Shown in pieces: positions 10,372 through 26,530 of a stretch of 64,000 nt of DNA; positions within the stretch are counted from its first letter, which is position 1, and every line of letters starts with the position of its first letter. The DNA lies in NCBI RefSeq assembly GCF_000384115.1, contig NZ_KB913029.1, forward strand, positions 5,369,057-5,433,056. The letters are read 5' to 3'. The stretch is from Sporichthya polymorpha DSM 43042 (GTDB taxonomy: Bacteria; Actinomycetota; Actinomycetes; Sporichthyales; Sporichthyaceae). The position numbers and the translations under genes were made by a program. The notes below the pieces were generated by a model. That model saw only the letters and a program-made list of their open reading frames with translations, was not told the DNA's origin and did not search any database.

Positions 10372-10410
10372 GACACCCCGTACTCCCGAGTAATGGGGTG
10401 TCACCCTTTC
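10372..10410. repeat. Imperfect palindromic element related to the 41.25-kb palindrome
   Basis: GACACCCC (10372-10379) and TACTC (10381-10385) pair with GAGTA (10388-10392) and GGGGTGTC (10395-10402), with a CC loop and a small bulge. The right flank reads GGGGTGTCACCCTTTC (10395-10410), identical to 41284-41299. It lies 100 bp after bcp and could act as its terminator on the plus strand (CCCTTTC tail). It reads as a decayed copy of the perfect 58-bp palindrome after sbcC. Confidence 0.65.
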
Positions 10411-10502
10411 GTCGGGGTTATCCACAACCCGTTGGAGATGACATCTTCAATGGGGGTCGCGTGGTGTTGATGGGGCGTCAGAGGCGTTGTGGCACCGCGG
10501 AT

Positions 10503-10534
10503 TCCGCTCCTCCGCTCCTCCGCTCCTCCGCCCC
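10503..10534. repeat. 8-bp tandem repeat (TCCGCTCC)
   Basis: Three perfect head-to-tail copies of TCCGCTCC (10503-10526) plus a fourth degenerate copy, 58 bp upstream of the DUF222 start. Such a short array can vary in copy number by slippage and would change promoter or leader spacing. No function is shown. Confidence 0.7.
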
Positions 10535-10591
10535 CGCGCCTCGATCCCGTCGAAAATGGACTGTCGGTGGTGCCCGCTAGGTTCATTCGTG

Positions 10592-12379
10592 ATGACGGGG
10601 ACATCGACGGCAGCAGCACCCACGCCGAGTGCGTGGCAGGTCTCGCTCGGCCTGAGGCCGAGTGAGGCCGAGTGCGCGTCGATGACCGGGGCCGAGACGG
10701 TCGCGGTGCTGCGGGCGGCGCAGCGGCAGACCAACGCCGCCGACGCGGTGCGGTTGGCGATGGTGGCCGAGGTCGGGTCCCGGGGCCTGGACTCGCAGGA
10801 GGAGATCGTGCGCCTGGCGGCCCCGGACCGGTGGGGCGCCGATGAGGTCCGCACCGCCCTGCACATCTCGGGCTATACCGCGAATGAGCTGCTCGACTTC
10901 GCCTGGGCCGTCGTGCGGCGCTTCCCCAAGTTGCACGCCGCCATGGCCGCCGGCGAGTTGAGCATCGAACGGGCCCGGGTGATCCACTTCTGGGTCCGGG
11001 ACATGAGCGACGAGCACGCCAACACCGTGATCGATGAGGTCCTCGGGCACTGCTCGATCGACGCCGACCGGCCCTGGACCAGTGAGCAGCTCGCCGCGCG
11101 GTGCCGCAAACTCGGCATCCAGCTCGACCCGGACTGGGCGCTGCGCCGGTTCACCGAAGCCCACCGGGAACGGCGGGTCATCTCCTGGCGCAACGAGGAC
11201 GGCACCGCCACCATGGCCGCGCAGAACCAGGACCCCGCCCGGGTCGCCGCCGCGATCGCGCGGGTGCGGAAGCTCGCTGACGACGCCAAACGAACCGGGG
11301 ACCCGCGACCGCTGGATCACCTGCGCTCGGAGATCGCCCTCAACCTGCTGGACGGCACCTACGCCGGGTTCACCGACGAGGCGATCCTCGCCCACCTCGC
11401 CACCACACGCCCGACCGACGAGGAGATGGGCGAGGAGTTCCCGCCAGAGCCCGAACCCGAGCCTGAGCCGGAGCCGGCGCCCGAGCCGGAGCCCGAGCCG
11501 GAGGCAGCGCCCGAGCCCGAGCCCGAGGCCGAGCCGGAGGCAGCGCCCGGGCCGGAGGCGGCGCCCGAGCCGGAGCCCGCCCCGAGCGCGGTGTCTCCGC
11601 ACCACGGGGTGCAGCTGACCGCGAAGGTCTCCACCCTGCTCGGGTTGGACCGGGACCCGGCCGAGCTGGCCGGGCAGGGCCCGGTGCACGCCGAGTACGC
11701 CCGCGACCTTGCCCACCGACTGGCGGCGGGCCAGTGGCGGTTCGCGGTCACCGGCCCCGACGGGTACGCGGTCAGCTCCGGCCTCGTCAGCCCGCGGCCG
11801 GTCGACTGGGAACGACGCCGGACCAGTGACCACGGCATCGTCGACCTGCTCATCCCCGCCACCCTCCTGCAAGCGCTGCTCGACGGCACCGTCACCGGTG
11901 AACACGTCCCCACCTGGCGGGCCGTGCTGGTCGAGATCGGCCGCCAACACCTCCTCGCGACCGCCGGCGCCGAGAACGAGCCCGCCCCGGAGGACCCGGA
12001 CGACGACGCCCGGCGGCGCTTCCCCCGCCAAGGACTACGCCGGGACACCCAGCTGCGGATGACGACCTGCCAGGCCCCCGGCTGCCGGCTCCCCGCCGCG
12101 CGGTCCGAGATCGACCACACGATCGACCACGCCCGCGGGGGACTGACCCTGGCCGGGAACCTCGGCCCGCTCTGCGAGCACGACCACGACCTCAAGACCA
12201 AAGGCGGGTGGCAACTCATCCGGCTCGGCCACGACCGAGTCCGCTGGATCACCCGCCTCGGCGTCGGCTACGACGTCGAGATCCCACCCCTGATCGAGCC
12301 CGACCCACCCGGCCGGCCCCGAGCACCCGGGGAGGAGCGACCAGCACCCCGCTACGGACCCGACGAGCCAGCAGCCTGA
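10592..12379 (+). CDS. DUF222 domain HNH endonuclease-like protein (13E12-type family)
   Basis: 595 residues from the ATG at 10592; a GTG immediately before it is an equal alternative. The N-terminal DUF222 region covers about residues 20-280 ([20 protein letters not shown], and the RVIHFWVRD segment). A strongly acidic Glu-Pro/Ala-rich low-complexity insert follows at about residues 285-332. A second part of the domain leads to a C-terminal HNH motif at about residues 491-540, with [28 protein letters not shown] and HDLKTKGGW. Such proteins are abundant and multi-copy in actinobacteria, sometimes called 13E12 repeat proteins. The biological role is unproven, and nuclease activity or a mobile-element link is inference. 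Confidence 0.88.
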
Positions 12380-12580: not shown

Positions 12581-13789
12581 GTGCCCGTGCAGCTATCCGA
12601 CCTGCTGACTCCGCACCTCACGGGCGTCCAGGCCGTGGTCCAGCTCAGTGGCCCGGCGGTCGAGCTGCCGGGTGGGCTGAAGGCCCGGCCGGCCGCGGAC
12701 GACGAGCGGTTCGGGCCGGGGACGCTGGTCGTCCTGGCCGACGCGCCGGTCGCGGGGATCGCGGACCGGTTGCAGGCGGGGGCGCGGGTGCTGCTGCTCT
12801 CGACCGACGCCGGCGAGCCGGTGCCGCTGCACCTGATCCCTCGCGGGGGGACGCTGCAGCTGGTCGCCGCGGGCGCGCTGGACAGCGCCGACAGCCAGGA
12901 CGACACCGTCGTGGGAGCGGCGCTGCTGACCTGCGTCGAGGCGCACTCCGGGCTCCCGGCGGCGGAGCCGGACGACGACGAGGACATCGACGTCATGAGC
13001 GGGGCCGCGGCGACGGCCCGGTACGAGCGGGCGCTCGCGGGTCGGGACCGGCGGATCCAGTCGCTGGAGGCGCGGATCTCCGCCCTGGAGTCCTCTGCGA
13101 CCTACGTCGTCGGCCGGACCCTGGTGAACGCGGCCCGCAACCCGCGCAAGGCGAAGACCCTCCCGGCGGACCTGTGGGGCATGTGGAAGGGCCGGGCCGG
13201 CCGGTCGCGCAAGGGCGGCGACGCGGCGCCGGCGGCGTCCGTGCCGAACCGCGGCCTCGCGGCCCGCCAGGTCAACGAGCTCGACGACATCGACGCCGGG
13301 TTGCTCTACCTGACCCACACCGCGATGGCGATCGGGCCACGGACCGTCCCGGTGATCGCGGGCATCCTCACCGCGGACACCGCACCCGCGCTGCGCGGCG
13401 AGGCCGCCACCCCGCACGCGGTCGTGAACAAGCTGCTCCCCCACGACGGCGAGGGCATCGTGACGCGCACCGACCCCGACGTGGTGCTCATCGAGTCGGC
13501 CGCGCTCGGCGCGCCCGGCCCGTGGGCCTACACGACCCAGGGTGCGTACGGGGTGCGCGACCAGGCCCTGGTCGACATCATCACGGCCGCGCGCGCGATG
13601 GGGCGCCCGGTCGTCGTCTGGTGGAACTCGCCGCACTACGCCAGCCCCGGACTCAACCGCGTGGCGACGCACGCCGACCTCGTCCTGACCGACGCCGAAG
13701 CCGGCCCCGCCCTCGTCGCGCGGCTGAACACCCAGCTCGACCTCGGCTTCGACCTGCCGGCCGAGCGGGTCGTGGAGGAAAACGCATGA
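12581..13789 (+). CDS. CgeB/DUF3880-like N-terminal glycosyltransferase module, stand-alone
   Basis: 402 residues, GTG start at 12581 with GGAGG nine bases before. Residues of about 145-175 form a short coiled coil (RRIQSLEARISALESS), often seen at the ends of surface-glycan enzymes. From about residue 240 it resembles the N-terminal half of CgeB-type glycosyltransferases: DPDVVLIESAALG, then ITAARAMGRPVVVWW, then THADLVLTDAE. The C-terminal catalytic half of that family is absent; the gene stops and overlaps by ATGA the large glycosyltransferase gene. I infer that the two act together in polymer synthesis. The family assignment is by eye and only moderate. Confidence 0.6.
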   Translation: MPVQLSDLLTPHLTGVQAVVQLSGPAVELPGGLKARPAADDERFGPGTLVVLADAPVAGIADRLQAGARVLLLSTDAGEPVPLHLIPRGGTLQLVAAGALDSADSQDDTVVGAALLTCVEAHSGLPAAEPDDDEDIDVMSGAAATARYERALAGRDRRIQSLEARISALESSATYVVGRTLVNAARNPRKAKTLPADLWGMWKGRAGRSRKGGDAAPAASVPNRGLAARQVNELDDIDAGLLYLTHTAMAIGPRTVPVIAGILTADTAPALRGEAATPHAVVNKLLPHDGEGIVTRTDPDVVLIESAALGAPGPWAYTTQGAYGVRDQALVDIITAARAMGRPVVVWWNSPHYASPGLNRVATHADLVLTDAEAGPALVARLNTQLDLGFDLPAERVVEENA

Positions 13790-16008
13790 CCCGCCGCGCA
13801 ATGGTCTACGGCCACGTCGACCTCAACCTGATCGACGGCTCGGCCATCTGGGTTCAGGGGATCGTCCAGACGCTGTCGAACGCCGGGTGTCAGGTCGACC
13901 TGGTGCTCAAGGCGCCGATCAAGACCGATCGCCTCACCGCTCCCCTCGCGGCGCTGCCGAACGTCACGCTCGTGAAGCCGTTCGAGGACGCGCTACTGCC
14001 CGAACTCGCGAACGGCAAGTCCAACGGTCTGACGCCGCCTCAGGTCTCGCAGGTCCTGAAAGCCTTGGACACCAAGGCGCCCTACGACCTCGTGGTCGTG
14101 CGCGGCCTGCCCGCGGTGTCCCGCCTCGTCGCCGACGACGTCGCGACGGGCCGGCTCTGGACCTACCTCACCGACGTCCCGCAGTCCGTGGTCGAGGCGA
14201 CGCCGGAGGCCGTCAGCCAACTGACCGCGATCGCGAAGGCGTCCCGCTTCCTGCTCTGCCAGACCGAGGAGCTCCGCGGGTTCTTCGAGGGCCTGGTGCC
14301 CGAGGCCTGCGGCCGCTCGGTGCTCTTCCCGCCGGTCGCGCCGGAGGTGACCGGCGTCGAGTCGCCGCCCCCGCCGTCCGCGGACAGCACCCTCAAGCTC
14401 GTCTACACCGGCAAGTACGCGCCGCGGTGGAACACCCTCGAGATGGCGGCGCTGCCCGAGCAGCTCGCCGCCCGCGGGGTCAACGCCGAGCTGCACATGG
14501 TCGGCGACAAGGTCCACGACGACCCGAAGGACCCGACGTACAAGGAGCGGATGCAATCCGCACTGGAGTCGGGCAAGGGCGTCGTCTGGCACGGCGGGCA
14601 GCCGCGCGAGAAGGCGATGCAGCTCGCCGGCGCCGCGCACGTCGGCCTGTCCTGGCGGGACGCGGACCTCGACGACAGCCTCGAGCTCTCGACCAAGGTC
14701 CTGGAGTACGGCGTCCTCGGCCTGCCGGCCGTGCTCAACCGGACGCCGATGCACGAGCGGCTGCTCGGGCCCGACTACCCGCTGTTCGTCGACGGCATCG
14801 GCGCGGACGGCCCGGACCACGGCCTCGCCGAGGTCGTCGGCCTGATCGCCGGTGTCGCGACCGACCCCGCCAGGTACGCCCTCGCCCGCGAGCGCACGGG
14901 TGCCGCCGCCGCGCAGCACACGATGACGAAGGCGACCGAGCGCATGTCCACGCTGCTCGAGCGCGCCTTCCCCTCGGCCCGGCCGAACCTGCCCGCCGCC
15001 GGCGCGCGCCCGCTGCGCGTCGTGGTCGCCGGGCACGACATGAAGTTCTTCACCCGCATCGCGGACTACCTGGCCGCGCTCCCCGGCGTCGAGCTCCGCA
15101 TGGACAACTGGGAGACCCTGGGCCGCCACGACAAGGAGCGCAGCCGGGAACTGCTCGACTGGGCCGACGTCATCATCTGCGAGTGGTGCGGCGGCAACGC
15201 GATCTGGTACTCGAAGCACAAGCGGTCCAACCAGCGCCTGATCATCCGCCTGCACCGGTTCGAGCTGTTCACGAACTACGTCAAGCAGGTGAAGATCCGC
15301 AACGTCGACACCGTCGTCTGCGTGAACCGGCACTACGCCGACCTCACCGCTCAGATCACGAGGTGGCCGACGGAGAAGATCGTCGTGGTCCCGAACTGGG
15401 TCGACGGTGCGCAGCTCGACCGCCCGAAGCTGACGGGTGCTCAGTTCCACCTGGGCATGATCGGCATCGCCCCCGCCCGCAAGCGGATGGACCTCGCGCT
15501 CGACGTCCTCTCCGAACTCCGCCGGGACGACAAGCGCTTCCACCTGTTCGTGAAGAGCAAGCAGGCCTGGGACTACTGGTGGGTCTGGAAGCAGCCCGCC
15601 GAGCGCGCGCACGTCGACGACCTGATGCGCCGCATCCGAACGGACCCGAACCTGCGCGACGCGGTGGTCTTCGACGGCTTCGGGCCGGACGTGCCGGCCT
15701 GGTTACGGGGCATCGGCTGGGTGCTCTCGACCAGTGACGACGAGAGCTTCCACCTCTCCCCCGCCGAGGGCATGGCCTCCGGCGCGGTGCCCGCGGTCCT
15801 GCCCTGGCCGGGCGCGCGCACGGTCTACGCCGAGGAGTGGGTGCACGACTCGGCGGCCGCGATCGCGGCGGAGATCCGCACGGTGACCGCCGAGGGGACC
15901 TGGGAGGACCGGCGCGCCGAGGCACAGCGTCAGGTCACCGCCGCGTTCGACCTCCCGGTCGTCTGCGGCACCTTCGCGGACCTGCTGACCGGGGCTCCGA
16001 AGAGCTGA
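13786..16008 (+). CDS. Two-domain glycosyltransferase (tandem GT-B modules)
   Basis: 740 residues from the ATG at 13786, which overlaps the upstream stop. The first GT-B-like module is at about residues 1-400, with GSAIWVQGIVQTLSNAG near the start, a KLVYTGKYAPRWNTLEM segment and a donor-site-like ESLELSTKVLEYGVLGLPAV region. The second module begins near residue 407 (LRVVVAGHDMKFFTRIADYL), with VVVPNWVDGAQL, LGMIGIAPARKRMDLALDVL and the GT4-type donor region STSDDESFHLSPAEGMASGA. Two nucleotide-sugar-using modules in one chain suggest that two sugars are added in turn, as in bifunctional polymerases, which is an inference. The deacetylase gene follows after 2 bp. Confidence 0.82.
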   Translation: MTRRAMVYGHVDLNLIDGSAIWVQGIVQTLSNAGCQVDLVLKAPIKTDRLTAPLAALPNVTLVKPFEDALLPELANGKSNGLTPPQVSQVLKALDTKAPYDLVVVRGLPAVSRLVADDVATGRLWTYLTDVPQSVVEATPEAVSQLTAIAKASRFLLCQTEELRGFFEGLVPEACGRSVLFPPVAPEVTGVESPPPPSADSTLKLVYTGKYAPRWNTLEMAALPEQLAARGVNAELHMVGDKVHDDPKDPTYKERMQSALESGKGVVWHGGQPREKAMQLAGAAHVGLSWRDADLDDSLELSTKVLEYGVLGLPAVLNRTPMHERLLGPDYPLFVDGIGADGPDHGLAEVVGLIAGVATDPARYALARERTGAAAAQHTMTKATERMSTLLERAFPSARPNLPAAGARPLRVVVAGHDMKFFTRIADYLAALPGVELRMDNWETLGRHDKERSRELLDWADVIICEWCGGNAIWYSKHKRSNQRLIIRLHRFELFTNYVKQVKIRNVDTVVCVNRHYADLTAQITRWPTEKIVVVPNWVDGAQLDRPKLTGAQFHLGMIGIAPARKRMDLALDVLSELRRDDKRFHLFVKSKQAWDYWWVWKQPAERAHVDDLMRRIRTDPNLRDAVVFDGFGPDVPAWLRGIGWVLSTSDDESFHLSPAEGMASGAVPAVLPWPGARTVYAEEWVHDSAAAIAAEIRTVTAEGTWEDRRAEAQRQVTAAFDLPVVCGTFADLLTGAPKS

Positions 16009-16010
16009 AC

Positions 16011-16967
16011 GTGGCCCGAGGGACCCGAGCCGCGGCGTTCGTCCTCGGCCTCGCCCTGCTCGGGGCCTGCGGCGGTGGCGACGACTCCCGGGCGGCCGAA
16101 CCCAGCCCGACGCCGTCCCCCGCCACCCGCGTCCCCGCCACCCGCGTCCCCGCCGCGGGCGGGATCGACGAGCTCGGCCAGATCCCGATTCTGATGTACC
16201 ACCAGATCCGGCCCGAGGCCCGCGCCCCGTCGGACCGGACGCCCGCGCAGTTCCGCGCGGACCTGCGCCGGCTCCACGCCGAGGGCTACCGGCCCGTCAC
16301 CGCGGCGGACTACGTCGCCGGGAACATCGACCTGCCCGTCGGCACGCACCCGGTCGTGCTGACCTTCGACGACTCCTCGGCCGGCCAGGCCCAGATCGGT
16401 CCGGACGGCGAACCGGAGCCGAACACCGCACTCGGCATTCTCGAGGCGTTCGGCCGCGCGCACCCGGACTTCCGCCCCACCGCGACGTTCTTCGTTGTCA
16501 CCAACCGCATCCCGTTCAACGACCCGGACGTCCTGCCCTGGCTCGCCGCCAACGGCTACGAGATCGGGGCGCACACCCAGTCGCACCCGGAGCTGCAGCA
16601 CCTCGACGACCTCGCCGTGCAGGAGCAGATCGGCGCCAATCTCGCCGACATCGACGCCGCGGTCCCCGGCTACCAGGTCCGGACGTTCGCGACGCCGTAC
16701 GGCCACCTGCCGCGCAATCCCGAACTCGCCTGGCGCGGGTCGTACAACGGCGTCCCGTACGAGTTCGCCGCCGTCTTCGGCACCGGACGCACGGCGGCGC
16801 TCTCCCCGTTCGCGACGGCGTTCGACCCCTACGCGATCCCGCGCCTCGCCGCCGGGCTCTCCGCCGCCGAAGCGGTGCTCGCCGAGCTGCGCCGCCGCCC
16901 GGAGCTGCGGTACACGTCCGACGGCGACCCCGACCGGGTCAGTGGCGGGCGGCGAGCCAGCGCTTGA
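16011..16967 (+). CDS. Polysaccharide deacetylase (CE4/NodB family) lipoprotein
   Basis: Probable metal-dependent N-deacetylase acting outside the membrane on a glycan. 318 residues from the GTG at 16011, two bases after the glycosyltransferase stop. The signal peptide ends in lipobox LLGAC (Cys about residue 18) followed by a Pro/Thr linker. The NodB domain shows ILMYHQI, the catalytic TFDD motif and the metal-binding HTQSH motif. The C-terminal part (FATPYGHLPRN) carries the usual R/P motif. The substrate is inferred to be the polymer made by neighbouring genes. The last 29 bp overlap the 3' end of convergent wecB. Confidence 0.9.
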   Translation: MARGTRAAAFVLGLALLGACGGGDDSRAAEPSPTPSPATRVPATRVPAAGGIDELGQIPILMYHQIRPEARAPSDRTPAQFRADLRRLHAEGYRPVTAADYVAGNIDLPVGTHPVVLTFDDSSAGQAQIGPDGEPEPNTALGILEAFGRAHPDFRPTATFFVVTNRIPFNDPDVLPWLAANGYEIGAHTQSHPELQHLDDLAVQEQIGANLADIDAAVPGYQVRTFATPYGHLPRNPELAWRGSYNGVPYEFAAVFGTGRTAALSPFATAFDPYAIPRLAAGLSAAEAVLAELRRRPELRYTSDGDPDRVSGGRRASA

Positions 16968-18036
16968 GGACGTGCGCGATGCGCGGGCCGGCCTGACCGT
17001 CCCACAGCGGCGGGCCCTCCGGCGGCCACTCGGCCTCGGCGGACAGCGCCTCCTTCGCGGCGGCGACCATCGTCGCCGGCGTCACGAGCTTGTTGGTGCC
17101 GTGGGTCGTGGTGATCGGACGCTCGGTGTTCGGACGGGCCGTCAGACACGGCACCTTCAGCGCCGTCGTCTCCTCCTGGACGCCACCGGAGTCGGTGAGC
17201 ACCAGGGCGGCGCCGCGCACCAGCGACATGAAGTCGAGGTAGCCGAGCGGGTCGACGATCTGCAGGTCGGGCGTGGCGACGAGCCCCGCCTCGGCCAGCG
17301 TCGCCCGGCCACGCGGGTGCAGCGGCAGCACGATCGGCAGCATGCGACTGACCTCGTTGACCGCCTCGACAAGTTCACGCGCGGAGGCGACGTCGTCGAC
17401 GTTGCCCGGCCGGTGCAGGGTCGCGACGCCGTAGCGCTCCGGCAGGCTGAAGCGGGCGCGCATCGCCGCGGCGTCGAGCTTGGGCAGCGCGGCGAACAGG
17501 CTGTCGATCATCGGGTTGCCGACGAGGTGGACCTTGTCCGGGCTGATGCCCTCCTGCCCGAGCAGGCCGATCGCCTCGGGGCTGGTGGCGAAGAGCAGGT
17601 CGGCGAGGGAGTCCGTGACGATCCGGTTGATCTCCTCCGGCATCGTCCGGTCGAACGAGCGCAGGCCGGCCTCGACGTGGCCGAACGGGACGCCCATCTT
17701 CGAACACACCAGCGCCGCGGCGAGGGTGGAGTTCACGTCGCCGTAGACGAGCACGAGCTCGGGGCGGCGCTCCGCGATCAGGTCCTCGAGCCCGGCCAGC
17801 AGGGCGCCGGTCTGCTTGCCGTGGCTGCCCGAGCCGACGCCGAGGTTGGCCACCGGCTCCGGCAGCCCGAGGTCGGCGAAGAACACGTCGGACATCAACG
17901 CGTCGTAGTGCTGACCGGTGTGGACGATCTGCTGCGTCAGGCCGGGGATCGCGAGGGCGTCGAGCGCCCGGATCACCGGGGCGGCCTTGGGAAAGTTGGG
18001 ACGCGCTCCGAGTACGTGCAGGATCTCCGCGTCCAT
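16939..18036 (-). CDS. wecB: UDP-N-acetylglucosamine 2-epimerase (non-hydrolysing)
   Basis: Converts UDP-GlcNAc to UDP-ManNAc, the precursor of ManNAcA and ManNAc residues in surface glycans. 365 residues, typical length. It shows GARPNFPKAAPVIRAL at the N-terminus (the usual consensus is GTRPE), HTGQHYD, VYGDVNSTLAAALVC, the catalytic region HVEAGLRS, MPEEINR and the UDP-binding TDSGGVQEE. With wecC at 23.4 kb it would give UDP-ManNAcA. It is transcribed opposite to the neighbouring glycosyltransferases and overlaps the deacetylase gene tail to tail. Confidence 0.94.
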   Translation of the reverse strand: MDAEILHVLGARPNFPKAAPVIRALDALAIPGLTQQIVHTGQHYDALMSDVFFADLGLPEPVANLGVGSGSHGKQTGALLAGLEDLIAERRPELVLVYGDVNSTLAAALVCSKMGVPFGHVEAGLRSFDRTMPEEINRIVTDSLADLLFATSPEAIGLLGQEGISPDKVHLVGNPMIDSLFAALPKLDAAAMRARFSLPERYGVATLHRPGNVDDVASARELVEAVNEVSRMLPIVLPLHPRGRATLAEAGLVATPDLQIVDPLGYLDFMSLVRGAALVLTDSGGVQEETTALKVPCLTARPNTERPITTTHGTNKLVTPATMVAAAKEALSAEAEWPPEGPPLWDGQAGPRIAHVLKRWLAARH

Positions 18037-18090: not shown

Positions 18091-19362
18091 TCAGCCCGAG
18101 ATCGCGAAGGTCCGCGAGCCGCGGCGCCCCCGAATGCGCCACCGGTGCGGCAGCGCCGCGAGCCCGGAAGCCGTGGACGTGGCCGGCAGGACGTGCTGCT
18201 GCCACCCGCGGTTGAGCTCGCCGATCAGGCGGGTCGCGCGCCGGCGGCCCATCACCTCGACGGCCTGCCGGAAGTACGCACCGGACGCCTTGCCGAACCC
18301 GGGGACCCGGTATCTCGCCGCGAGACCGAGGTGGATCATCGCGTAGCCGTTGCCCCGGGCGGCCGCGTCCGCGAGCAGCTCCCGGGCGGCGCCGAAGTCC
18401 TGCGCGCTGCCCAGCCCGCGCAGGTGGACCAGGGCGAGCTCCACCATCGCCGCCTCGCGACCGTCGGCGACGCCCGAGACCAGCAACGCGATGCGCTCGG
18501 GGGTGTAGTCGGCCCGGGCGAGCATCTCCGGCCGGCCGGCACCCACGAGTCGCGGACGTTCCAGGTTCTTCTCGACGTACCGCGACCCCGTCTCCGGGTC
18601 GATCCGCGGCGCGGCTTCGAGCGTCCAGTCCAGGTCGTAGTCGTGCCGCCGGAGCTGGGCCTCGAACAGCGGCCGGTAGGTGTCGACGTCGCTCGGGGTG
18701 AACCAGTGCCGCCATCCGCCCGCGGTCTTGGCCCGCTCGTTGTGGGCGATGTGCTGCCCCACGCTGACCTCGGTGCGGACGGGCACCCCGAGCTGCCGAG
18801 CGAGATCCGCGACCTCGCCGGCGAGGAAGTCCTCGTACCGGATGCGGTGCAGGTCCGGGTACCGCTCGCACACGGCGTCCTCGTCGGCGAAGGCGCGCTC
18901 GAAGCGCTCCGCGAACGGGCGCCCGACGCCGTGCCGGCGGTACACGTCCTCGAGCTCGGCGAGCGGAACCGACCGGGGATCGGCCTCCTTCCGCCGCAGC
19001 GCCCCGCAGAACTCCGAGAGGAACTCCGGATTGCGCGCGGACCCGCCGAGCAGCGGACGGAAGAGCATCCAGCTGACGAGCATGTCCCGCGGGTCGCGGA
19101 CGATGTGGACGCGGTGGTCGAAGCCGGTCAGGTCGAGGCCGCGCTCGACCACGCGGCTCAGCAGCACCTTCGTCACGCGTCGCGGTGCCGAATGGGTCGT
19201 CAGGAAGTGGACCTGGCCCTGGTGGTTGGTCTCGTAGATGGCGAGCCAGTGCCCGGAGCTCCGGATGGCCGAGAACAGGGCGGAGGTACCGGACTTGGCG
19301 GCGCCCACCACGACCACGCTCAGGCCGGCCGACTGGCCGGTGTCCGCGGATCGGTTCGCCAT
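18091..19362 (-). CDS. Sulfotransferase with C-terminal Sel1-like repeats (copy A)
   Basis: 423 residues. The N-terminal sulfotransferase domain (about residues 15-285) has the PAPS 5'-phosphosulfate loop GAAKSGTSALF and the 3'-phosphate motif VRDPRDMLVSW, so transfer of sulfate from PAPS to a glycan or lipid hydroxyl or amine is the likely reaction. Residues of about 300-370 look like one to two Sel1/TPR-like repeats (AAMVELALVHLRGLG, AARELLADAAARGNGYAM), which normally mediate protein contacts. A basic C-terminal tail follows. It has no signal peptide, so the domain is cytoplasmic. A close paralog with the same fusion lies at 20465-21727. Confidence 0.85.
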   Translation of the reverse strand: MANRSADTGQSAGLSVVVVGAAKSGTSALFSAIRSSGHWLAIYETNHQGQVHFLTTHSAPRRVTKVLLSRVVERGLDLTGFDHRVHIVRDPRDMLVSWMLFRPLLGGSARNPEFLSEFCGALRRKEADPRSVPLAELEDVYRRHGVGRPFAERFERAFADEDAVCERYPDLHRIRYEDFLAGEVADLARQLGVPVRTEVSVGQHIAHNERAKTAGGWRHWFTPSDVDTYRPLFEAQLRRHDYDLDWTLEAAPRIDPETGSRYVEKNLERPRLVGAGRPEMLARADYTPERIALLVSGVADGREAAMVELALVHLRGLGSAQDFGAARELLADAAARGNGYAMIHLGLAARYRVPGFGKASGAYFRQAVEVMGRRRATRLIGELNRGWQQHVLPATSTASGLAALPHRWRIRGRRGSRTFAISG

Positions 19363-19465
19363 GTCACACGACCGTACGGACGTCGTGGGCGACTTCTGCC
19401 CAATTCAGGCGCCGCACGCGAACATCTCAGGACCTTGCCAGGAACGAACCGATAGCCTGCTGCGC

Positions 19466-20461
19466 GTGTCGAATGCGCGTGCCGAACGTCCTGTCCTGGT
19501 CATGGGGTGCCCGCGCTCCGGAACGACGCTGATGCGGCTGATGCTGCTCTCGCACCCGCGGATCGCCGTCCCGCCGGAGACGCGCTTCGTGCTCCGCAGC
19601 TACTACGAGCGCGAGCGCTTCGGCGACCTCACGCAGGAGGCGAACCGGCGCAAGCTCGCCGAGTTCATCACCGGCAAGCAGGGCCAGTTCGACCGCCTCG
19701 GCATCGACCGGAAGACCACGATCGAGGCCATCGTCGCCGCGCCGCCCACGATCGGGTCCGCGCTGTCCGCGACGTTCGAGCAGTACGCCGCGCGCTTCGA
19801 CAAGCCGCGCTGGGGCGACAAGTTCCCCACCTACATCGAGCACGTCGACGACCTGCTGCGGCTGTACCCGAACGCGCAGCTGGTCAACATGGTCCGCGAC
19901 GGCCGCGACGCCGCCGCGTCCCTGACCCGGCAGCGCTGGTCCAAGCGCGACACCCCCGAGGCGATCGCCCAGTGGAACCGCGCGATCGACTACGGCCGCC
20001 GCGCCGCGAAGCGCGTGCCGTCCGGGCAGTGGATGGAGATCCGCTACGAGGCCCTCGTCAGCGACCCCGAGCCCGTCCTCAAGGAGCTGTGCAACTTCCT
20101 CGGGGAGGACTTCGCGCCCGAGATGCTCACTCCCTCGGAGGTGGGCTCCGACGCCACCGTCGACGGGCGGCCGCTCGCGGGCAAGCTCGCCGGTGAGGTG
20201 ACGACGAGCAGCATCGGCCGCTGGCAGGAGCGCTTCCAGCCCTGGGAGGCCGAGCTGATGAACGCGATGTCGGGCCGCCGGCTGCGTTCTCTCGGCTACG
20301 AGGTGCCGAAGGGCGCCCGGCCGTCGCCGAAGGGCGTGCTCCGCACCATCCAGGCCGACGTCGAGCACCGCGCCCGGCGGCTCCGGCGGCAGCAGAAGGA
20401 CCTGCTCCGCCGTCGCCAGGAGGCCAAGGACGGCGTCTCGGTGGCGGCCGTCCAGGGCTGA
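19466..20461 (+). CDS. Sulfotransferase family protein (single domain)
   Basis: 331 residues from the GTG at 19466, which gives a normal N-terminus just before the PAPS loop VLVMGCPRSGTTLMRLML. The 3'-phosphate-binding region is VNMVRDGRDAAASL, and the acceptor side includes RWGDKFPTYIEHVDDLL. The C-terminus is strongly basic (RARRLRRQQKDLLRRRQ), which suggests contact with membrane or anionic polymer. It lies between the two Sel1-fused sulfotransferases and is divergent from copy A. The substrate is unknown. Confidence 0.85.
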   Translation: MSNARAERPVLVMGCPRSGTTLMRLMLLSHPRIAVPPETRFVLRSYYERERFGDLTQEANRRKLAEFITGKQGQFDRLGIDRKTTIEAIVAAPPTIGSALSATFEQYAARFDKPRWGDKFPTYIEHVDDLLRLYPNAQLVNMVRDGRDAAASLTRQRWSKRDTPEAIAQWNRAIDYGRRAAKRVPSGQWMEIRYEALVSDPEPVLKELCNFLGEDFAPEMLTPSEVGSDATVDGRPLAGKLAGEVTTSSIGRWQERFQPWEAELMNAMSGRRLRSLGYEVPKGARPSPKGVLRTIQADVEHRARRLRRQQKDLLRRRQEAKDGVSVAAVQG

Positions 20462-20464
20462 GGC

Positions 20465-21727
20465 TCAGCGCCCGACGCGCTCCTGCAGCTTCGACCGCAG
20501 CGCCTTGGCGCGGGCGAGCCCGTCCGCCAGCTGCAGCCGGATTCGCTCCGTCGGGACCGCGAACGGCCGCGCCTTGCCCGCGGCCGGGAGCACGTGCTGC
20601 CGCCAGGCCGGGTCGAGCGCGAGGATGATCTGGTCGGTCCGCTTGCGGCCGGCGACCGACGCGGCCTTCGAGAAGAACGGACCCGGGTCGGTCCCCCAGC
20701 CCGGGACGCGGTACCGGGCGCCGAGGCCCCGGTGGACCATCGCGTACGCGTTGCCGCGGGCCGCGGCGTCCTCGAGCAGTTCCTTCGCCGCGGCGAGGTC
20801 CTGCGGCTGGTGCACCCCACGGAGGTAGACCAGCGCGAGCTCGATCATCGCGGCCTCGCGGCCGTCCTGCACGCCGGAGCGGAGCACCGCGAAGCGCTCC
20901 TCGTCGTACTTCTCCGCCGGGAGGAACTGCTCGGGACCGTTGCCGATCAGCTGCGGCCGGTTCCGGTTGCGCTCCAGGTACTCCGACGACGTCGCGGGGT
21001 TGATCTGCGGGTCCGCGGCCAGCGTCCAGTCGAGGTCGTAGTCGTACTTGGCCAGCTGCGGCTCGAAGAGCTCGCGGTAGGTCTCGACGTCGCCCGGGGT
21101 GAACCAGTGGCGCCAGCCGCCGGCGGACTTGCTGCGCTCGTTGTAGCCGCTGTGCTCACCGAGGCGAACCTTCGTCGCGATCGGGATGCCGAGGTACTCG
21201 GAGACCGCGTCGACCTTGCCGTCGAGGAAGTCCTCGTAGCGCAGTACGTGCATGTCCGGGTACTGCGTCAGCACCTGCTTCTGGTCGAAGAAGCCGCGCT
21301 TGAGCCGACGCGAGAACGGCATGTCCATCGAACGGCGCAGATAGATGGCCTCCAGGTCGGCGATCGACACCGACGCCGGGTCGGCCTCCTTCTTCCGCAG
21401 CGCGGCGAGGAACTCGTTCCAGAAGTCGTCGTCACGCGCGCTGCCGTGCAGCAGCGGGCGGAACAGCATCCAGCTGATGAGCATGTCCCGCGGGTCACGG
21501 ACGAGGTAGACCTGCTTGTCGAACGCGGTCAGGTCCAGGTTCCGCTCGACGACCCGGCGCACGAGGATCTTCGTCATCCGCTGCGGTGCCGGATGGTTCG
21601 TCAGGAACGCGAGCTGACGCTCGTTGTTCATCTCGTAGATGGCCAGCCAGTCGCCCACGTTGCGGACGGCCGCGAACAGCGCCGACGTGCCCGACTTGGC
21701 GGCCCCGACGACCGCGATGCACGTCAT
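20465..21727 (-). CDS. Sulfotransferase with C-terminal Sel1-like repeats (copy B)
   Basis: 420 residues from the ATG at 21727. The ATG at 21776-21778 would add 17 residues, and neither start has a strong ribosome binding site. The architecture is the same as copy A: PAPS loop GAAKSGTSALF, 3'-phosphate motif VRDPRDMLISW, a shared NERSKSAGGWRHWFTPGDV block, then Sel1-like segments (AAMIELALVYLRG, AAKELLEDAAARGNAYAM). The two copies are clear paralogs of the same strand flanking a third sulfotransferase. It is divergent from the glycosyltransferase at 21789, with about 60 bp between the starts. Confidence 0.85.
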   Translation of the reverse strand: MTCIAVVGAAKSGTSALFAAVRNVGDWLAIYEMNNERQLAFLTNHPAPQRMTKILVRRVVERNLDLTAFDKQVYLVRDPRDMLISWMLFRPLLHGSARDDDFWNEFLAALRKKEADPASVSIADLEAIYLRRSMDMPFSRRLKRGFFDQKQVLTQYPDMHVLRYEDFLDGKVDAVSEYLGIPIATKVRLGEHSGYNERSKSAGGWRHWFTPGDVETYRELFEPQLAKYDYDLDWTLAADPQINPATSSEYLERNRNRPQLIGNGPEQFLPAEKYDEERFAVLRSGVQDGREAAMIELALVYLRGVHQPQDLAAAKELLEDAAARGNAYAMVHRGLGARYRVPGWGTDPGPFFSKAASVAGRKRTDQIILALDPAWRQHVLPAAGKARPFAVPTERIRLQLADGLARAKALRSKLQERVGR

Positions 21728-21788
21728 GCCCGAAATCCGATCCGTGTCCGAACGCCACCCCTCACGGGCACCGAGCATACTTGCGCCG

Positions 21789-23363
21789 GTGAACGCGCTC
21801 CGGGCTCTCGTCGGTCCCCTGCTGCGCGGGGCCCTGACGCGGCCCGCGCTGACCGCCCGGGTCGTCCGTGACCGCATCACCGAGGACCCCGCCCGCCTCC
21901 CCGGACTGAACCGGCTCCCCCGCACCGCGGCCGGGCAGACCCGCGACCGCGCCCGGGCACTCGCCCGGGCGGGTGAGCTCTCCGCGGCCGTCGCGCTGCT
22001 CCCGGCGGGCGACCGCCTCCGCCGGCGCTACGAGGGGGAACTGCGCGCCTACGGCAAGGACCCGGTGCCCTCCCGCGGCGGCGAGCGCGTGGTCGGGACG
22101 CCCGGCCGCGTGCTGCACCTCGTCACCAACGCGCTCCCCTACGCCCAGGCGGGCTACACACTGCGGACGCACCGCATCCTGCGCGCACAGCGGGCGGCCG
22201 GGCTGGACCCGGTCGCGGTCACCCAGTGGGGCTGGCCCGCCCGCGACGGCCACCCGGAGGCGGCGCCGGCGGAGACGATCGACGGGATCGTCTACCACCG
22301 CCTGATCCCCACCGGCCGGATCCCGGCCGAGGCCGACCGTCGCCTGCAGCGCGGCGCGGACGCCGCGACCGAGCTCGTGCGCACGCTGCGCCCGAGCGTC
22401 CTGCACGCCGCGACCGACCACCGCAACGGCACCGTCGCCCTGGCCGTCCGCGAGCGGACCGGGCTGCCGGTGCTCTACGAGATCCGCGGCTTCCTCGAGG
22501 AGTCCTGGGCCGCCGGGGCCGCGCTCGACCCGAACGCGGACCTCGAGGCGACGATGCCCGAACGCATGCGTCTGCACCGGGACCGCGACACCGCGATCAT
22601 GGCCGAGGCCGACCTGGTCGCGACGCTGTCGGAGACCATGCGCGCCGAGATCCTGAACCGCGGGATTCCGGCCGAGAAGATCGTGCTGACCCCGAACGCC
22701 GTCGACGCAGCACTTCTGACGCAGCATCACGACCGACCGGCCGCGCGCCGCGAGTGGGGCCTCGCCGACGACGAGTTCGTCGTCGGCACCGTGTCCAAGC
22801 TCGCCGCGTACGAGGGCTTCGACGTCCTGCTCCAGGCCGCCGCCCTGCTGCGGGACCGCGGGGCGAAGGTCCGGGTGCTCCTGGTCGGGGGCGGGCCGTT
22901 CCGGTCGACCCTCGACAAGCTCGCCGCCGAGCTCGGTCTGGGGCCGGAGCACCTGCTGATGCCCGGTCAGGTCGCCCCCGACGTGGCGCTGCGCGTGGTC
23001 GCCGCCCTGGACGTCTTCGTCTGCCCCCGTCTCGACCTGCGGGTGACCCGGCTGGTGACCCCGCTCAAACCGCTGGAGGCCATGGCCGCGGGCCGGCCGC
23101 TGGTCCTTTCGGATCTTCCTGCGCTCCGCGAGCTCGTCGACGAGCGCAGCGGCCCGACGCCCGGGCGAGTGGCGGCCGAGCTGGTCCGGCCGGGTGACGC
23201 GGAGTCCCTGGCCGCCGGTTTGGAGCGGTTGCGCACCGATTCCTCCCGGTGCGCGGAGTTGGCGGCGGCCGCGCGGGACGTCGTGGCCGAGCGGTTCACC
23301 TGGGACCGGCTGGCGGAGACGTATCGCGCCCTCTACGCCCGGCTGGGCACCCCGAACGCGTAA
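21789..23363 (+). CDS. GT4-type glycosyltransferase
   Basis: 524 residues from the GTG at 21789. An N-terminal extension of about 110 residues precedes the GT-B fold, which starts near RVLHLVTNALPYAQAGYTLR. Acceptor-side motifs include LYEIRGFLEESW, and the linker VLTPNAVDAALL precedes the C-terminal domain with VGTVSKLAAYEGFDVLLQA and the retaining-GT donor region PLKPLEAMAAGRPLVLSDL. It probably transfers a sugar from a nucleotide donor to the growing glycan at the cytoplasmic face. wecC follows 58 bp downstream. Confidence 0.9.
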   Translation: MNALRALVGPLLRGALTRPALTARVVRDRITEDPARLPGLNRLPRTAAGQTRDRARALARAGELSAAVALLPAGDRLRRRYEGELRAYGKDPVPSRGGERVVGTPGRVLHLVTNALPYAQAGYTLRTHRILRAQRAAGLDPVAVTQWGWPARDGHPEAAPAETIDGIVYHRLIPTGRIPAEADRRLQRGADAATELVRTLRPSVLHAATDHRNGTVALAVRERTGLPVLYEIRGFLEESWAAGAALDPNADLEATMPERMRLHRDRDTAIMAEADLVATLSETMRAEILNRGIPAEKIVLTPNAVDAALLTQHHDRPAARREWGLADDEFVVGTVSKLAAYEGFDVLLQAAALLRDRGAKVRVLLVGGGPFRSTLDKLAAELGLGPEHLLMPGQVAPDVALRVVAALDVFVCPRLDLRVTRLVTPLKPLEAMAAGRPLVLSDLPALRELVDERSGPTPGRVAAELVRPGDAESLAAGLERLRTDSSRCAELAAAARDVVAERFTWDRLAETYRALYARLGTPNA

Positions 23364-23421
23364 CCTGGGAAGTCGATCACCGGGGGAAAACTGGCCCCGG
23401 CACGGCGGACTGGATGGGGAC

Positions 23422-24687
23422 ATGAGCGGCTTTCAGTACGACCTCGGCGTCATCGGCCTCGGCTACGTAGGCCTGCCGCTCGTGGTCGAGGCGGTGGCCG
23501 CCGGCATGCGCGTCGCCGGGGTCGACGCCAGCGAGCGCAAGGTCACCGGGCTGCTGGCCGGGCAGTCCCACGTCGACGACATCAGCGACGAGCAGGTCGC
23601 GCACCTGATCGCCACCAACTTCTTCCCCACCACCGACTCCACCGTGGTCGGCGACTGCGAGACGGTCGTCATCTGCGTCCCGACGCCGCTGGACGACGAC
23701 CGCCGCCCCGACCTCGGCGCGGTCAACGCTGCGACCGCGGCCATCGCGGCCCACCTGAAGCCGGGTCAGCTCGTCGTGCTGGAGTCCACGACCTGGCCGG
23801 GCACCACGCGGGACGTCCTCCTGCCCGCGCTGGAGGCCGGCGGTCTCGAAGCGGGTTCGGACTTCTTCCTCGCGTTCTCGCCCGAGCGCATCGACCCGGG
23901 CAACCCGACCTTCGGCCTCCGCAACACCCCGAAGGTCGTCGGCGGTCACACGCTCGCGTGCCGGGACCGCGCCGTCGCGTTCTACGGGAAGATCGTCGAG
24001 ACCGTCGTGCCGGTGAAGGGCACCGCCGAGGCCGAGATGGCCAAGCTGCTCGAGAACACCTACCGGCACGTGAACATCGCGCTCGTCAACGAGATGGCGA
24101 TGTTCTGCAACGAGCTCGGCATCGACCTGTGGTCGGCGATCGACGCGGCCGCGACGAAGCCGTTCGGGTTCCAGGCGTTCCGCCCCGGCCCCGGCGTCGG
24201 CGGGCACTGCATCCCGATCGACCCGAACTACCTCTCGCACGCGGTTCGCAAGCTCGGCTACCCCTTCCACTTCGTGGAGCTGGCGCAGGAGGTCAACGAG
24301 CGCATGCCGGTGTACGTCGCCCAGCGCGCGACGCGGCTGCTCAACACCCAGCGCAAAGCGGTCAACGGCTCGAACATCCTGCTGCTGGGCGTGACCTACA
24401 AGCCCGACATCGCCGACGAGCGCGAGACCCCGGCGCTGCCGCTGGTCCGTCGCCTCCGGGCGCTCGGGGCCGAGGTCAGCTACTGCGACCCGCACGTCCC
24501 GTCGTGGAACGTCGACGGCACGCCGGTGCCGAAGGTCGACGACCTCGGCGACGGCGTCCGCCTCGCGGACCTGTCGATCCTGCTCGCGCCGCACCGCGCC
24601 TTCGACCTCGACGTGATCACCGGCGGGCAGCTCGTGCTGGACACCCGCGGCGTACTGACCGCGTCGTCCACGGTCGAGCGCCTCTGA
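23422..24687 (+). CDS. wecC: UDP-N-acetyl-D-mannosaminuronate dehydrogenase-type nucleotide sugar dehydrogenase
   Basis: NAD-dependent four-electron oxidation of a UDP-sugar to the uronate. 421 residues. Rossmann motif VIGLGYVGLPL (residues 9-19), SPERIDPGNP (typical of the UDP-ManNAc/UDP-GlcNAc branch rather than UDP-Glc dehydrogenase), the NTYRHVNIALVNE helix, and the catalytic Cys in GVGGHCIPIDP. The C-terminal domain has LGVTYKPDIADERETP. wecB nearby supports UDP-ManNAc as substrate, although UDP-GlcNAc (WbpA-like) remains possible. ATG at 23422. Confidence 0.88.
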   Translation: MSGFQYDLGVIGLGYVGLPLVVEAVAAGMRVAGVDASERKVTGLLAGQSHVDDISDEQVAHLIATNFFPTTDSTVVGDCETVVICVPTPLDDDRRPDLGAVNAATAAIAAHLKPGQLVVLESTTWPGTTRDVLLPALEAGGLEAGSDFFLAFSPERIDPGNPTFGLRNTPKVVGGHTLACRDRAVAFYGKIVETVVPVKGTAEAEMAKLLENTYRHVNIALVNEMAMFCNELGIDLWSAIDAAATKPFGFQAFRPGPGVGGHCIPIDPNYLSHAVRKLGYPFHFVELAQEVNERMPVYVAQRATRLLNTQRKAVNGSNILLLGVTYKPDIADERETPALPLVRRLRALGAEVSYCDPHVPSWNVDGTPVPKVDDLGDGVRLADLSILLAPHRAFDLDVITGGQLVLDTRGVLTASSTVERL

Positions 24688-24706: not shown

Positions 24707-25795
24707 ATGCGCGTCCTCGTGATGACGGTCGTGCACCATCCGGAGGACGCCCGGATCCTGCACCGCGAGATCGCCTCGCTGACCGCGGCCGGGCACTCGG
24801 TCGTGTACGCGGCGCCGTTCTCGGCGCGCGGCGTGACGCCCCGGGACGGGCTGGAGGGCGTCGACCTGCCGCGCTCGGCCGGCCGCAACCGGCTCGGCGC
24901 GGTGAAGGCCGCCCGCGCCGCCTACCGGCGGCTGCGGGACGAGGTCGACATCACGGTCCTGCACGACCCCGAGCTGCTGCTCGCCGTCGCCGGCGCGCAC
25001 CGCGGGCGCCCGGTGGTGTGGGACGTGCACGAGGACACCGCCGCCGCGCTCGGCATGAAGGCCTGGCTCCCCCGGCCGGCGCGGGTGCCGCTCGCGGCCG
25101 CCGTCCGCCTCGCGGAGAGCGCCGCGGAGCGCTCGGTGCACCTGCTGCTCGCCGAGCACGGCTACGTCGGCCGGTTCCGCCGCCCCCACCCGGTGGTGCC
25201 GAACCAGACACTGGTGCCCGCGCAGGTCCCGCCCCCGGGCGCGGACCGGGCCGTGTACCTCGGCGCGATCACCCTCGAGCGCGGCGCGGCCGAGATGGTC
25301 GCCGTCGCCCGCCGCCTCGCGCCCGAGGGTGTGCGGGTCGAGCTGATCGGCGGCGCCGACGCGGCCGCGACGCCGCTGCTGGAGCAGGCCGTCGCCGACG
25401 GTGTCCTCGACTGGGCCGGGTTCCAGCCCAACGACACCGCACTCGCCCGACTGCCCGGCGCCCTGACCGGCCTGTCCCTGCTGACCGACCAGCCGAACTA
25501 CCGGCACTCGATGCCGACCAAGGTCATCGAGTACATGGCCCACGGGCTGCCGGTCGTCACCACCCCGAACCCGCCCGCGGCCGACCTCGTCACCCGGCAC
25601 GGCTGCGGGACGGTCGTCGGCTGGGACGACCCCGCCGCCGCGGCCGCCGCGGTGCTGCGGCTGCGGGACGACGCCGAGCGGCGGGTCGCCTACGGCCGCC
25701 GCGGTCACGAGGCCGCCCTCGCCGAGCACGACTGGCGGACCGCCGGCGAGAAGTTCGTCGCCCAGCTGGAGGCCTGGGCGCGGGCCGGGTCCTGA
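24707..25795 (+). CDS. GT4-type glycosyltransferase
   Basis: 362 residues. The GT-B N-terminus is MRVLVMTVVHHPEDARILHR, with VVWDVHEDTAAALG in the acceptor domain, VVPNQTLVPA at the domain linker, YLGAITLERGAAEMVAVARR at the start of the donor domain, and HSMPTKVIEYMAHGLPVVTT as the retaining-GT nucleotide-binding region. It follows wecC by 19 bp, so the two are likely co-transcribed and this enzyme is a candidate for transferring the uronate. It ends 15 bp before the convergent sulfotransferase. Confidence 0.9.
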   Translation: MRVLVMTVVHHPEDARILHREIASLTAAGHSVVYAAPFSARGVTPRDGLEGVDLPRSAGRNRLGAVKAARAAYRRLRDEVDITVLHDPELLLAVAGAHRGRPVVWDVHEDTAAALGMKAWLPRPARVPLAAAVRLAESAAERSVHLLLAEHGYVGRFRRPHPVVPNQTLVPAQVPPPGADRAVYLGAITLERGAAEMVAVARRLAPEGVRVELIGGADAAATPLLEQAVADGVLDWAGFQPNDTALARLPGALTGLSLLTDQPNYRHSMPTKVIEYMAHGLPVVTTPNPPAADLVTRHGCGTVVGWDDPAAAAAAVLRLRDDAERRVAYGRRGHEAALAEHDWRTAGEKFVAQLEAWARAGS

Positions 25796-25810: not shown

Positions 25811-26530
25811 TCAGTCCAGGACGAGGTCGTCGGAGGAGCTCGGCTCCTCCGCCGGCAGGGCGGTGCCCCACGCCGCGAGAAACGCGTCCGCGGCGGCGTC
25901 CATGCGCGCGAGCGTTCCGGCGGTCTCGGCGCCGATGCGCTCGGCGTTCGCCTCGCCGACCTCGTCGAGGATCTCCTCCTTGCTCCGGGTCGCGCGGAAC
26001 AGGTTGTCGCCGCGGGTGCCGAGGAACTTGTTCATCGCCCCGAAGGACGGCCCGCCCTGGAGCAGGCGGTCGTAGCTGACGACCCCGATCCGGGGGTCGT
26101 TCGCGTCCAGGGCCGAGGAGTTGATGCGGTTCCACTCGTTCGCGAAGCGGGCGGCGTCGTTGCGGTCGGTCCAGCGCGCGCTGCGGGAGCGGAACACCGC
26201 CACCGGGTCGCGGTAGATCCACGCGACCTTGAGGTCGTAGTCCGCGAACGGGGCGAGAAACTCCGCCACCGGGGTCTTGAACACCGACTGGATCGGCTTG
26301 AGCAGCACCTTGTGCGGGGCGCAGGAGCGCAGGAAGCCGCGGATCTCCGGCTCCGGGCGCAGCTTCCACCGCGCGTACAGCTCACTGTTCGCCCGCTCGT
26401 TGAAGCCCATCACGTACGGGTCGAGCGAAAGGGACTGCCGCAGCGCGTTCGTCCCCGAGCGCTGCGAGCCGAGCACGAAGATCAGCGCCGGGCGCCGCCC
26501 GGGGCGGAGCTTCGAGATCACGCCGCTCAC
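25811..26530 (-). CDS. Small sulfotransferase-like protein
   Basis: 239 residues, GTG start at 26530 overlapping the SMI1/KNR4 stop (GTGA). The PAPS-loop-like motif VLGSQRSGTNALRQSL lies at about residues 19-34 and the 3'-phosphate-like motif WIYRDPVAVFRSR at about residue 105. Basic and aromatic residues (KPIQSVFKTP) occupy the expected catalytic area. The protein is shorter than usual and divergent from the other three. Because it is coupled to SMI1/KNR4 and rdgB rather than to the glycosyltransferases, its role may be separate from the glycan locus. Confidence 0.78.
   Translation of the reverse strand: MSGVISKLRPGRRPALIFVLGSQRSGTNALRQSLSLDPYVMGFNERANSELYARWKLRPEPEIRGFLRSCAPHKVLLKPIQSVFKTPVAEFLAPFADYDLKVAWIYRDPVAVFRSRSARWTDRNDAARFANEWNRINSSALDANDPRIGVVSYDRLLQGGPSFGAMNKFLGTRGDNLFRATRSKEEILDEVGEANAERIGAETAGTLARMDAAADAFLAAWGTALPAEEPSSSDDLVLD

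What the first reader, a model, noticed from the sequence alone, without database searches (positions are those of the whole stretch)
18091..21727. Sulfotransferases fused to Sel1-like repeats, in a symmetrical three-gene arrangement
Copies A (18091-19362) and B (20465-21727) share an N-terminal PAPS-dependent sulfotransferase and a C-terminal Sel1/TPR-like region, and flank a third, unfused sulfotransferase on the opposite strand. Sel1 repeats normally mediate protein-protein contacts, so these enzymes may be tethered to a glycan-assembly complex. I know of no described role for this fusion.
Basis: partly seen in the sequence, partly recalled or inferred. Interest (0 to 1): 0.7.

Follow-up and report, generated by a model that had tools for sequence, protein, structure and literature searches.

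The report
Sulfotransferases with docking-repeat tails
Two enzymes predicted to add sulfate to a bacterial surface sugar carry a protein-docking tail, and in other actinobacteria relatives with the same two-part build sit beside, or are fused to, the pump that exports such sugars, which suggests that sulfation and export are physically coupled.

Summary
Genes A (18091-19362, -) and B (20465-21727, -) encode a PAPS-type sulfotransferase domain (about residues 1-255 in B) followed by about two Sel1-like repeats (about 272-385) and a basic tail. No single protein reaches Pfam's Sel1 cut-off. However, a profile of the C-terminal regions of nine homologues hits Sel1 structures down to E 5.5e-32, and the region modelled alone matches Sel1 proteins best (Z about 10). 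Two stand-alone homologues stop where the Sel1 part begins, so it is an add-on.

The architecture is rare but not private to this genome. It recurs in Acidimicrobiia and in another class of Actinomycetota. There it lies beside Wzm/Wzt-type ABC exporter genes (two loci), beside orthologues of the window's WecB epimerase and double glycosyltransferase, or beside a homologue of the middle sulfotransferase. In one genome a catalytically degenerate copy is fused to the exporter ATPase.

Best reading: active glycan sulfotransferases docked by Sel1 repeats and a basic tail to a membrane glycan assembly or export machine. Binding partner, acceptor sugar and activity are untested; the window itself holds no exporter. 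"Symmetrical" overstates the layout: A and B share a strand. I found no published description.

The parts
18091..19362 (-). Gene A: sulfotransferase-Sel1 fusion, 423 aa
   Evidence: ORF and GC3; Pfam; orthologue in sister species 79% identical, dN/dS 0.35
18562..19362 (-). A: PAPS-type sulfotransferase domain (aa 1-267), PSB loop GAAKSGT, 3'-phosphate motif RDPRDMLVS
   Evidence: alignment and conserved residues
18172..18513 (-). A: Sel1-like repeat region (about aa 284-397)
   Evidence: Pfam Sel1 15.5 bits; family profile vs PDB
19466..20461 (+). Middle gene: free-standing Sulfotransfer_3 enzyme, 331 aa (ORF opens at 19238; likely GTG start 19466)
   Evidence: PF13469 E 3.6e-41; sister orthologue starts at the matching GTG; homologue adjacent to a sulfotransferase-Sel1 gene in L038, 45% over 286 aa
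20465..21727 (-). Gene B: sulfotransferase-Sel1 fusion, 420 aa
   Evidence: sister orthologue 95% identical, dN/dS 0.14
20963..21727 (-). B: PAPS-type sulfotransferase domain (aa 1-255)
   Evidence: AlphaFold model, Z 13.4 to SULT2A1 with PAPS over aa 1-232
20573..20914 (-). B: Sel1-like solenoid (aa 272-385; helices 276-287, 291-302, 308-323, 327-338, 349-359, 361-384)
20465..20572 (-). B: basic C-terminal tail (net +4 in last 20 residues), candidate membrane-contact helix
   Evidence: dN/dS 0.07
16939..18036 (-). WecB-type UDP-GlcNAc 2-epimerase, neighbour; orthologues travel with sulfotransferase-Sel1 genes in L054 and L035
   Evidence: Pfam; 62% and 56%
13774..16008 (+). Double glycosyltransferase; full-length orthologues (37.5-52%) in L054 and L035
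   Evidence: Pfam; tblastn
21639..23363 (+). Family 4/1 glycosyltransferase (ORF; true start later)
23194..24687 (+). UDP-glucose/ManNAc-type dehydrogenase (ORF; true start later)
24707..25795 (+). Glycosyltransferase; 52% orthologue in L054
25811..26530 (-). Fourth, short sulfotransferase-like protein, 239 aa
   Evidence: Pfam borderline, 26.9 vs cut-off 27

Best explanation
A and B are PAPS-dependent sulfotransferases that sulfate a cell-envelope glycan built by the surrounding cluster (WecB epimerase, sugar dehydrogenase, several glycosyltransferases). The short Sel1 solenoid and basic tail act as a docking and membrane-contact module that holds the enzyme at the membrane-bound assembly or export machinery, so the glycan is sulfated in the cytoplasm before export. 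Shown here: two-domain architecture, retained catalytic signature, purifying selection on both domains, recurrent linkage of the architecture to glycan genes and Wzm/Wzt-type exporters, and one natural fusion to the exporter ATPase. Inferred: enzymatic activity, acceptor, docking partner, membrane contact by the tail, and timing of sulfation. A and B are paralogues from a duplication before the split of the two species and probably differ in acceptor position (inference).
For: Sulfotransferase fold with PAP/PAPS-bound structures as best matches, Z 13.4. Twelve catalytic homologues keep E32, K53, R77, S85 and Y164 (B numbering), and all but one (Arg in the phage copy) keep the K11 of the PSB loop. 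APS kinase is encoded in the genome. Sel1 identity. The Sel1 region evolves under constraint equal to the enzyme domain (dN/dS 0.14 vs 0.15 in B, 0.34 vs 0.33 in A). The first homologues in other classes were found with a sulfotransferase-only profile, yet most carry the Sel1 part. L054: sulfotransferase-Sel1 beside permease, ATPase, WecB (62%), double glycosyltransferase (52% over 742 aa) and another glycosyltransferase (52%). L038: beside a middle-sulfotransferase homologue (45%) and permease/ATPase. L035: fused to the ATPase, next to permease, WecB and double glycosyltransferase. In 345 sampled Acidimicrobiia, 3 genomes have full-length sulfotransferase-Sel1, 3 have the full-length double glycosyltransferase, 2 have both in one locus (my hypergeometric estimate 1.5e-4, genomes treated as independent). 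All 11 free-standing copies have basic tails (+3 to +9; background mean 0.1), the ATPase-fused copy does not (-2). Precedent: the alginate AlgK-AlgX modification and secretion complex (PMC9734138); AlgK also appears among the fold matches.
Against: No exporter, flippase or polymerase was recognised in the window cluster. The nearest Wzt-like ATPase/permease pair lies in a separate glycan locus near the contig start. Some homologues are not in a glycan locus (L055, L036, L037), and a closely similar glycan-export locus lacks the module (L076). Two Sel1 repeats make a short docking surface. Partner, acceptor and activity are untested. The exporter-fused copy is catalytically degenerate, so it need not mirror what A and B do.
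Confidence: 0.55

Rival explanations
1. Cap-writer model: A and B place a terminal sulfate on the growing glycan chain and so end it and license its export, like the WbdD-type terminators of O-antigens. The Sel1 part (with a coiled coil in some relatives) spaces or docks the terminator, and the ATPase-fused pseudo-enzyme in L035 reads the cap as a Wzt carbohydrate-binding domain does.
For: Same set of parts: modifying enzyme, helical-repeat bundle, C-terminal coiled-coil-like stretch in N23 and G771 (sequences), dual-glycosyltransferase protein, Wzm/Wzt-type exporter. The Klebsiella O4 terminator has a TPR-like bundle before its coiled coil, and capped chains are read by a C-terminal domain of Wzt (PMC11231755; PMC9445017). 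The L035 ATPase carries its degenerate sulfotransferase-Sel1 at that C-terminal position.
Against: A and B lack an obvious coiled-coil ruler and their cluster lacks an exporter. A similar locus (L076) has the exporter without any sulfotransferase-Sel1. No sulfate-capped, ABC-exported glycan was found in the papers held. Only one fused copy was seen.
Confidence: 0.15
2. The Sel1 region is a dimerisation or substrate-binding module of the sulfotransferase itself, without any partner complex.
For: The Sel1 part is conserved at the same rate as the enzyme domain. TPR-type domains can bind glycans and modulate polymer processing (title of PMC9384988).
Against: Stand-alone homologues (L010, L040) do without it. 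Linkage and fusion to the exporter point to a partner.
Confidence: 0.2
3. The enzymes sulfate a small molecule, glycolipid or protein rather than an exported polysaccharide; the neighbourhood is coincidental.
For: Fold matches include small-molecule, glycopeptide-antibiotic and protein-tyrosine sulfotransferases. Some homologues lie outside glycan loci (L055).
Against: Conserved linkage to the same glycan genes in different classes.
Confidence: 0.1

Closest known systems
Cytosolic and bacterial PAPS sulfotransferases (PF00685: SULT family, Teg12, StaL)
   Same: Fold (Z 11.6-13.4 over about 190 residues), PSB and 3'-phosphate motifs
   Different: 14-23% identity; the SULT catalytic His (from memory) is not evident at the aligned site; invariant E32 and K53 are the likely active-site residues (inference); extra C-terminal Sel1 part
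Sel1-like repeat proteins (SEL1L, 4bwr/c5321, LpnE, AlgK)
   Same: Profile E 5.5e-32 to 4bwr; fold Z 8-10.5
   Different: Only about two repeats, each below the Pfam cut-off, fused behind an enzyme
TPR-containing sulfotransferases as annotated in proteobacteria and cyanobacteria (from memory, not tested)
   Same: Sulfotransferase joined to an alpha-solenoid
   Different: From memory the repeats there are TPR and precede the enzyme; here they are Sel1 and follow it
WbdD/ORF7-O4 chain terminators and Wzt carbohydrate-binding domains (PMC11231755, PMC9445017)
   Same: Modifying enzyme plus helical bundle next to an ABC-exporter glycan system; extra domain at the C-terminus of the exporter ATPase
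   Different: Sulfotransferase instead of methyltransferase, kinase or Kdo transferase; the Wzt domain is a jelly roll, not a sulfotransferase-Sel1 module; capping untested
AlgK-AlgX alginate modification and secretion complex (PMC9734138)
   Same: Sel1/TPR-like scaffold bound to a polysaccharide-modifying enzyme at the export site
   Different: Separate proteins, Gram-negative, acetylation at the outer membrane rather than cytoplasmic sulfation

Membership tests
PAPS-dependent sulfotransferase (PF00685) | Pfam gathering score | tested here: met
   B 31.9 bits vs 22 (A 21.4, just under)
PAPS-dependent sulfotransferase (PF00685) | 5'-PSB Lys loop and 3'-phosphate Arg/Ser motif | tested here: met
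   GAAKSGT and RDPRDMxxS in A and B; R77 and S85 invariant in 12 catalytic homologues
PAPS-dependent sulfotransferase (PF00685) | Sulfotransferase fold | tested here: met
   Z 13.4, rmsd 3.7, 194 residues to 4ifb
PAPS-dependent sulfotransferase (PF00685) | PAPS-dependent sulfation activity | not testable with these tools
   no assay; APS kinase present in the genome
Sel1 repeat (PF08238) | Pfam gathering score in the single protein | tested here: not met
   15.5 and 16.9 bits vs 30.7; filed only as 'Sel1-like'
Sel1-like repeat superfamily | Sequence-profile relationship to solved Sel1 proteins | tested here: met
   E 5.5e-32 (4bwr), 1.8e-27 (8sxq), 7e-14 (SEL1L) with a nine-sequence profile
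Sel1-like repeat superfamily | Helix-turn-helix solenoid of about 36-residue units | tested here: met
   model pLDDT about 90 over the repeats; best matches LpnE, SEL1L and other Sel1 proteins, Z about 10
Wzm/Wzt-dependent glycan export with cap recognition | ABC exporter genes in the same locus | tested here: inconclusive
   present with homologues in L054, L038 and L035 but none recognised in the window; a Wzt-like pair lies elsewhere in the genome
WbdD-type chain terminator | Coiled-coil ruler behind the catalytic domain | tested here: inconclusive
   coiled-coil-like stretches seen by eye in N23 and G771, not in A or B; no coil predictor was run
WbdD-type chain terminator | Modification sits at the non-reducing end and stops elongation | not testable with these tools
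   needs glycan chemistry

The most novel reading that the evidence does not exclude
Sulfotransferase-Sel1 proteins and the ABC ATPase with a dead sulfotransferase-Sel1 domain form a writer/reader pair: a terminal sulfate written on actinobacterial glycans is what the exporter recognises, with the reader domain evolved from the writer.
Probability: 0.15. Interest if true: 0.82.

Novelty: new variant of a known kind. Interest (0 to 1): 0.55.

Why it matters
Little seems to be known about how sulfation of bacterial surface glycans is coordinated with their export; I found no paper on this architecture. This one, and above all its natural fusion to an ABC exporter ATPase, gives a concrete and testable physical link between a sulfotransferase lineage and glycan export in Actinomycetota. 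It also shows a sulfotransferase apparently turned into a non-catalytic exporter domain, which could reveal how exporters acquire glycan-recognition modules.

Tried and rejected
C-terminal region as an ordinary part of the sulfotransferase fold: rejected by stand-alone homologues and fold ranges. Fusion as an artefact of ORF calling: rejected, since the same architecture is in the sister species and other classes with purifying selection on both parts. Private oddity of one genus: suggested by class searches (2 of 394 genomes; C-terminal profile 1 of 396), then rejected once the sulfotransferase-only profile was used. Other Sel1 proteins in the genome as a source of the domain: none; gene B itself is the only hit. 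Plasmid origin: no match in the plasmid collection. phrog_8741 matches only the repeat region and carries no function. The four loci from the genome-contig scan are sulfotransferases without a visible Sel1 extension, three of them only distantly related.
Full report
OBSERVATION. They are 57% identical end to end. Pfam sees a sulfotransferase in both (A just under, B over the cut-off) and one sub-threshold Sel1 hit in each. The middle gene is a clear Sulfotransfer_3 enzyme on the other strand. BLASTP finds no significant similarity between it and B, so the trio is two paralogues around a third, at best distantly related, enzyme. A and B share a strand, so the arrangement is not mirror-symmetric. 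The trio is conserved in a sister species.

IS THE SEL1 PART REAL? The first homologues outside the genus were found with a profile of the sulfotransferase domain only. Most of them nevertheless carry a C-terminal stretch with its own weak Sel1 hit. A profile of nine such C-termini hits solved Sel1 proteins at E 5.5e-32 and several others below E 1e-8. The region modelled alone gives six helices in hairpins (mean pLDDT 80, about 90 over the repeats) and matches Sel1 structures best. Foldseek E-values are weak there, and Z about 10 is modest for helical repeats, so the sequence profile carries the argument. The whole-protein model places the PAPS sulfotransferase fold on residues 1-233. Two homologues, one in an Acidimicrobiia contig (258 aa) and one in a phage-like contig (271 aa), end just before the Sel1 region. 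The Sel1 part is thus an appended domain. It is as constrained as the enzyme part (dN/dS 0.14 vs 0.15 in B; 0.34 vs 0.33 in A).

ACTIVE SITE. In the twelve sequences kept as catalytic in the comparison, residues G8, G13, E32, K53, F69, R77, D78, P79, R80, D81, S85, L88, K113, P117, Y164, R198, G203, W205, W208, F209, D213, Y230 and Y250 (B numbering) are invariant; the PSB lysine K11 is present in all but the phage copy, which has Arg. A and B keep all of them, so both are predicted to be active. That E32 is the general base is inference. The genome encodes APS kinase, so PAPS should be available.

DISTRIBUTION. In the window's own class the fusion was found in one genus only (2 of 394 genomes). 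It recurs elsewhere in the phylum: in two families of another class and in 3 of 345 Acidimicrobiia genomes (that class is identified because locus L046 lies inside the named Acidimicrobiia contig L010). A tree puts A and B together with full support, as a duplication before the two species split. Gene A evolves faster than its neighbours (79% vs 93-99% identity for the other genes measured without a coordinate problem).

NEIGHBOURHOODS. The window cluster holds a double glycosyltransferase, a deacetylase, a WecB epimerase, two more glycosyltransferases, a sugar dehydrogenase and a fourth sulfotransferase-like gene. In Acidimicrobiia locus L054 a sulfotransferase-Sel1 gene lies with orthologues of the window's double glycosyltransferase (52% over 742 aa), WecB (62%) and a glycosyltransferase (52%), and with an ABC-2 permease and ATPase. 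In L035 the double glycosyltransferase (37.5% over 701 aa), WecB (56%) and permease are present, and the sulfotransferase-Sel1 part is the C-terminal domain of the ATPase. In L038, from a third class, the sulfotransferase-Sel1 gene adjoins a homologue of the window's middle sulfotransferase (45%) and a permease/ATPase pair. L076 has the same glycan genes and exporter without any sulfotransferase-Sel1, so the module is optional. Among 345 sampled Acidimicrobiia, full-length double glycosyltransferase and sulfotransferase-Sel1 each occur in 3 and together in 2; under independence that is about 1.5e-4 by my arithmetic, with no correction for relatedness and assuming both searches drew the same genomes. 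Counter-cases: L055, L036 and L037 show no glycan cluster.

THE FUSED COPY. The ATPase-borne copy has lost K11, E32, K53, R77, S85 and Y164, yet keeps W205, W208, K113, P117 and the Sel1 part. It is most simply a non-catalytic domain. Free-standing copies carry basic tails (+3 to +9 in the last 20 residues; 8% of 164 background ORFs reach +4), whereas the fused copy has -2, as expected if the tail serves membrane contact that the exporter supplies by itself. That is one fused case only, and the copies are related to each other.

MECHANISM. Best supported: A and B sulfate a glycan made by this cluster, held at membrane assembly or export machinery by the Sel1 solenoid and tail (0.55). A bolder version follows the O-antigen terminator/Wzt logic (PMC11231755, PMC9445017): the sulfate is a cap and the dead copy its reader (about 0.15). 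The window has no recognised exporter of its own; the closest Wzt-like pair found in the genome is in a separate glycan locus near the contig start. Whether it serves this cluster is unknown.

NOVELTY. No paper held here describes a sulfotransferase-Sel1 protein or its fusion to an exporter. Both domains are known kinds; their combination and the exporter fusion are what is new. Subscription literature and UniProt architecture counts could not be consulted.

Noticed in passing
L035 8225-9991 (-): ABC exporter ATPase whose C-terminal half is a degenerate sulfotransferase plus Sel1 domain with catalytic residues lost; adjacent permease at 9988-10809.
   Followed up: partly
L040 5995-6810 (+): A sulfotransferase of this family, 271 aa, without Sel1, inside a phage-like IMG/VR contig near what look like tail and tail-fibre genes; no match in the deposited phage collection.
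   Followed up: partly
window 18091-19362: Gene A evolves faster than most neighbours against the sister species (dS 0.37, dN/dS 0.35 versus 0.14-0.25 and 0.05-0.21), hinting at relaxed or altered selection or past recombination.
   Followed up: partly
window 25811-26530 (-): A fourth, short (239 aa) sulfotransferase-like protein at the end of the same glycan cluster.
   Followed up: no
window 12581-13789 (+): Protein with a coiled-coil-like stretch and no clear Pfam family, with distant homologues (25-30%) in the L054 and L076 glycan loci.
   Followed up: no
L036 and L037: Sulfotransferase-Sel1 genes outside recognisable glycan clusters; their context is unexplained.
   Followed up: no
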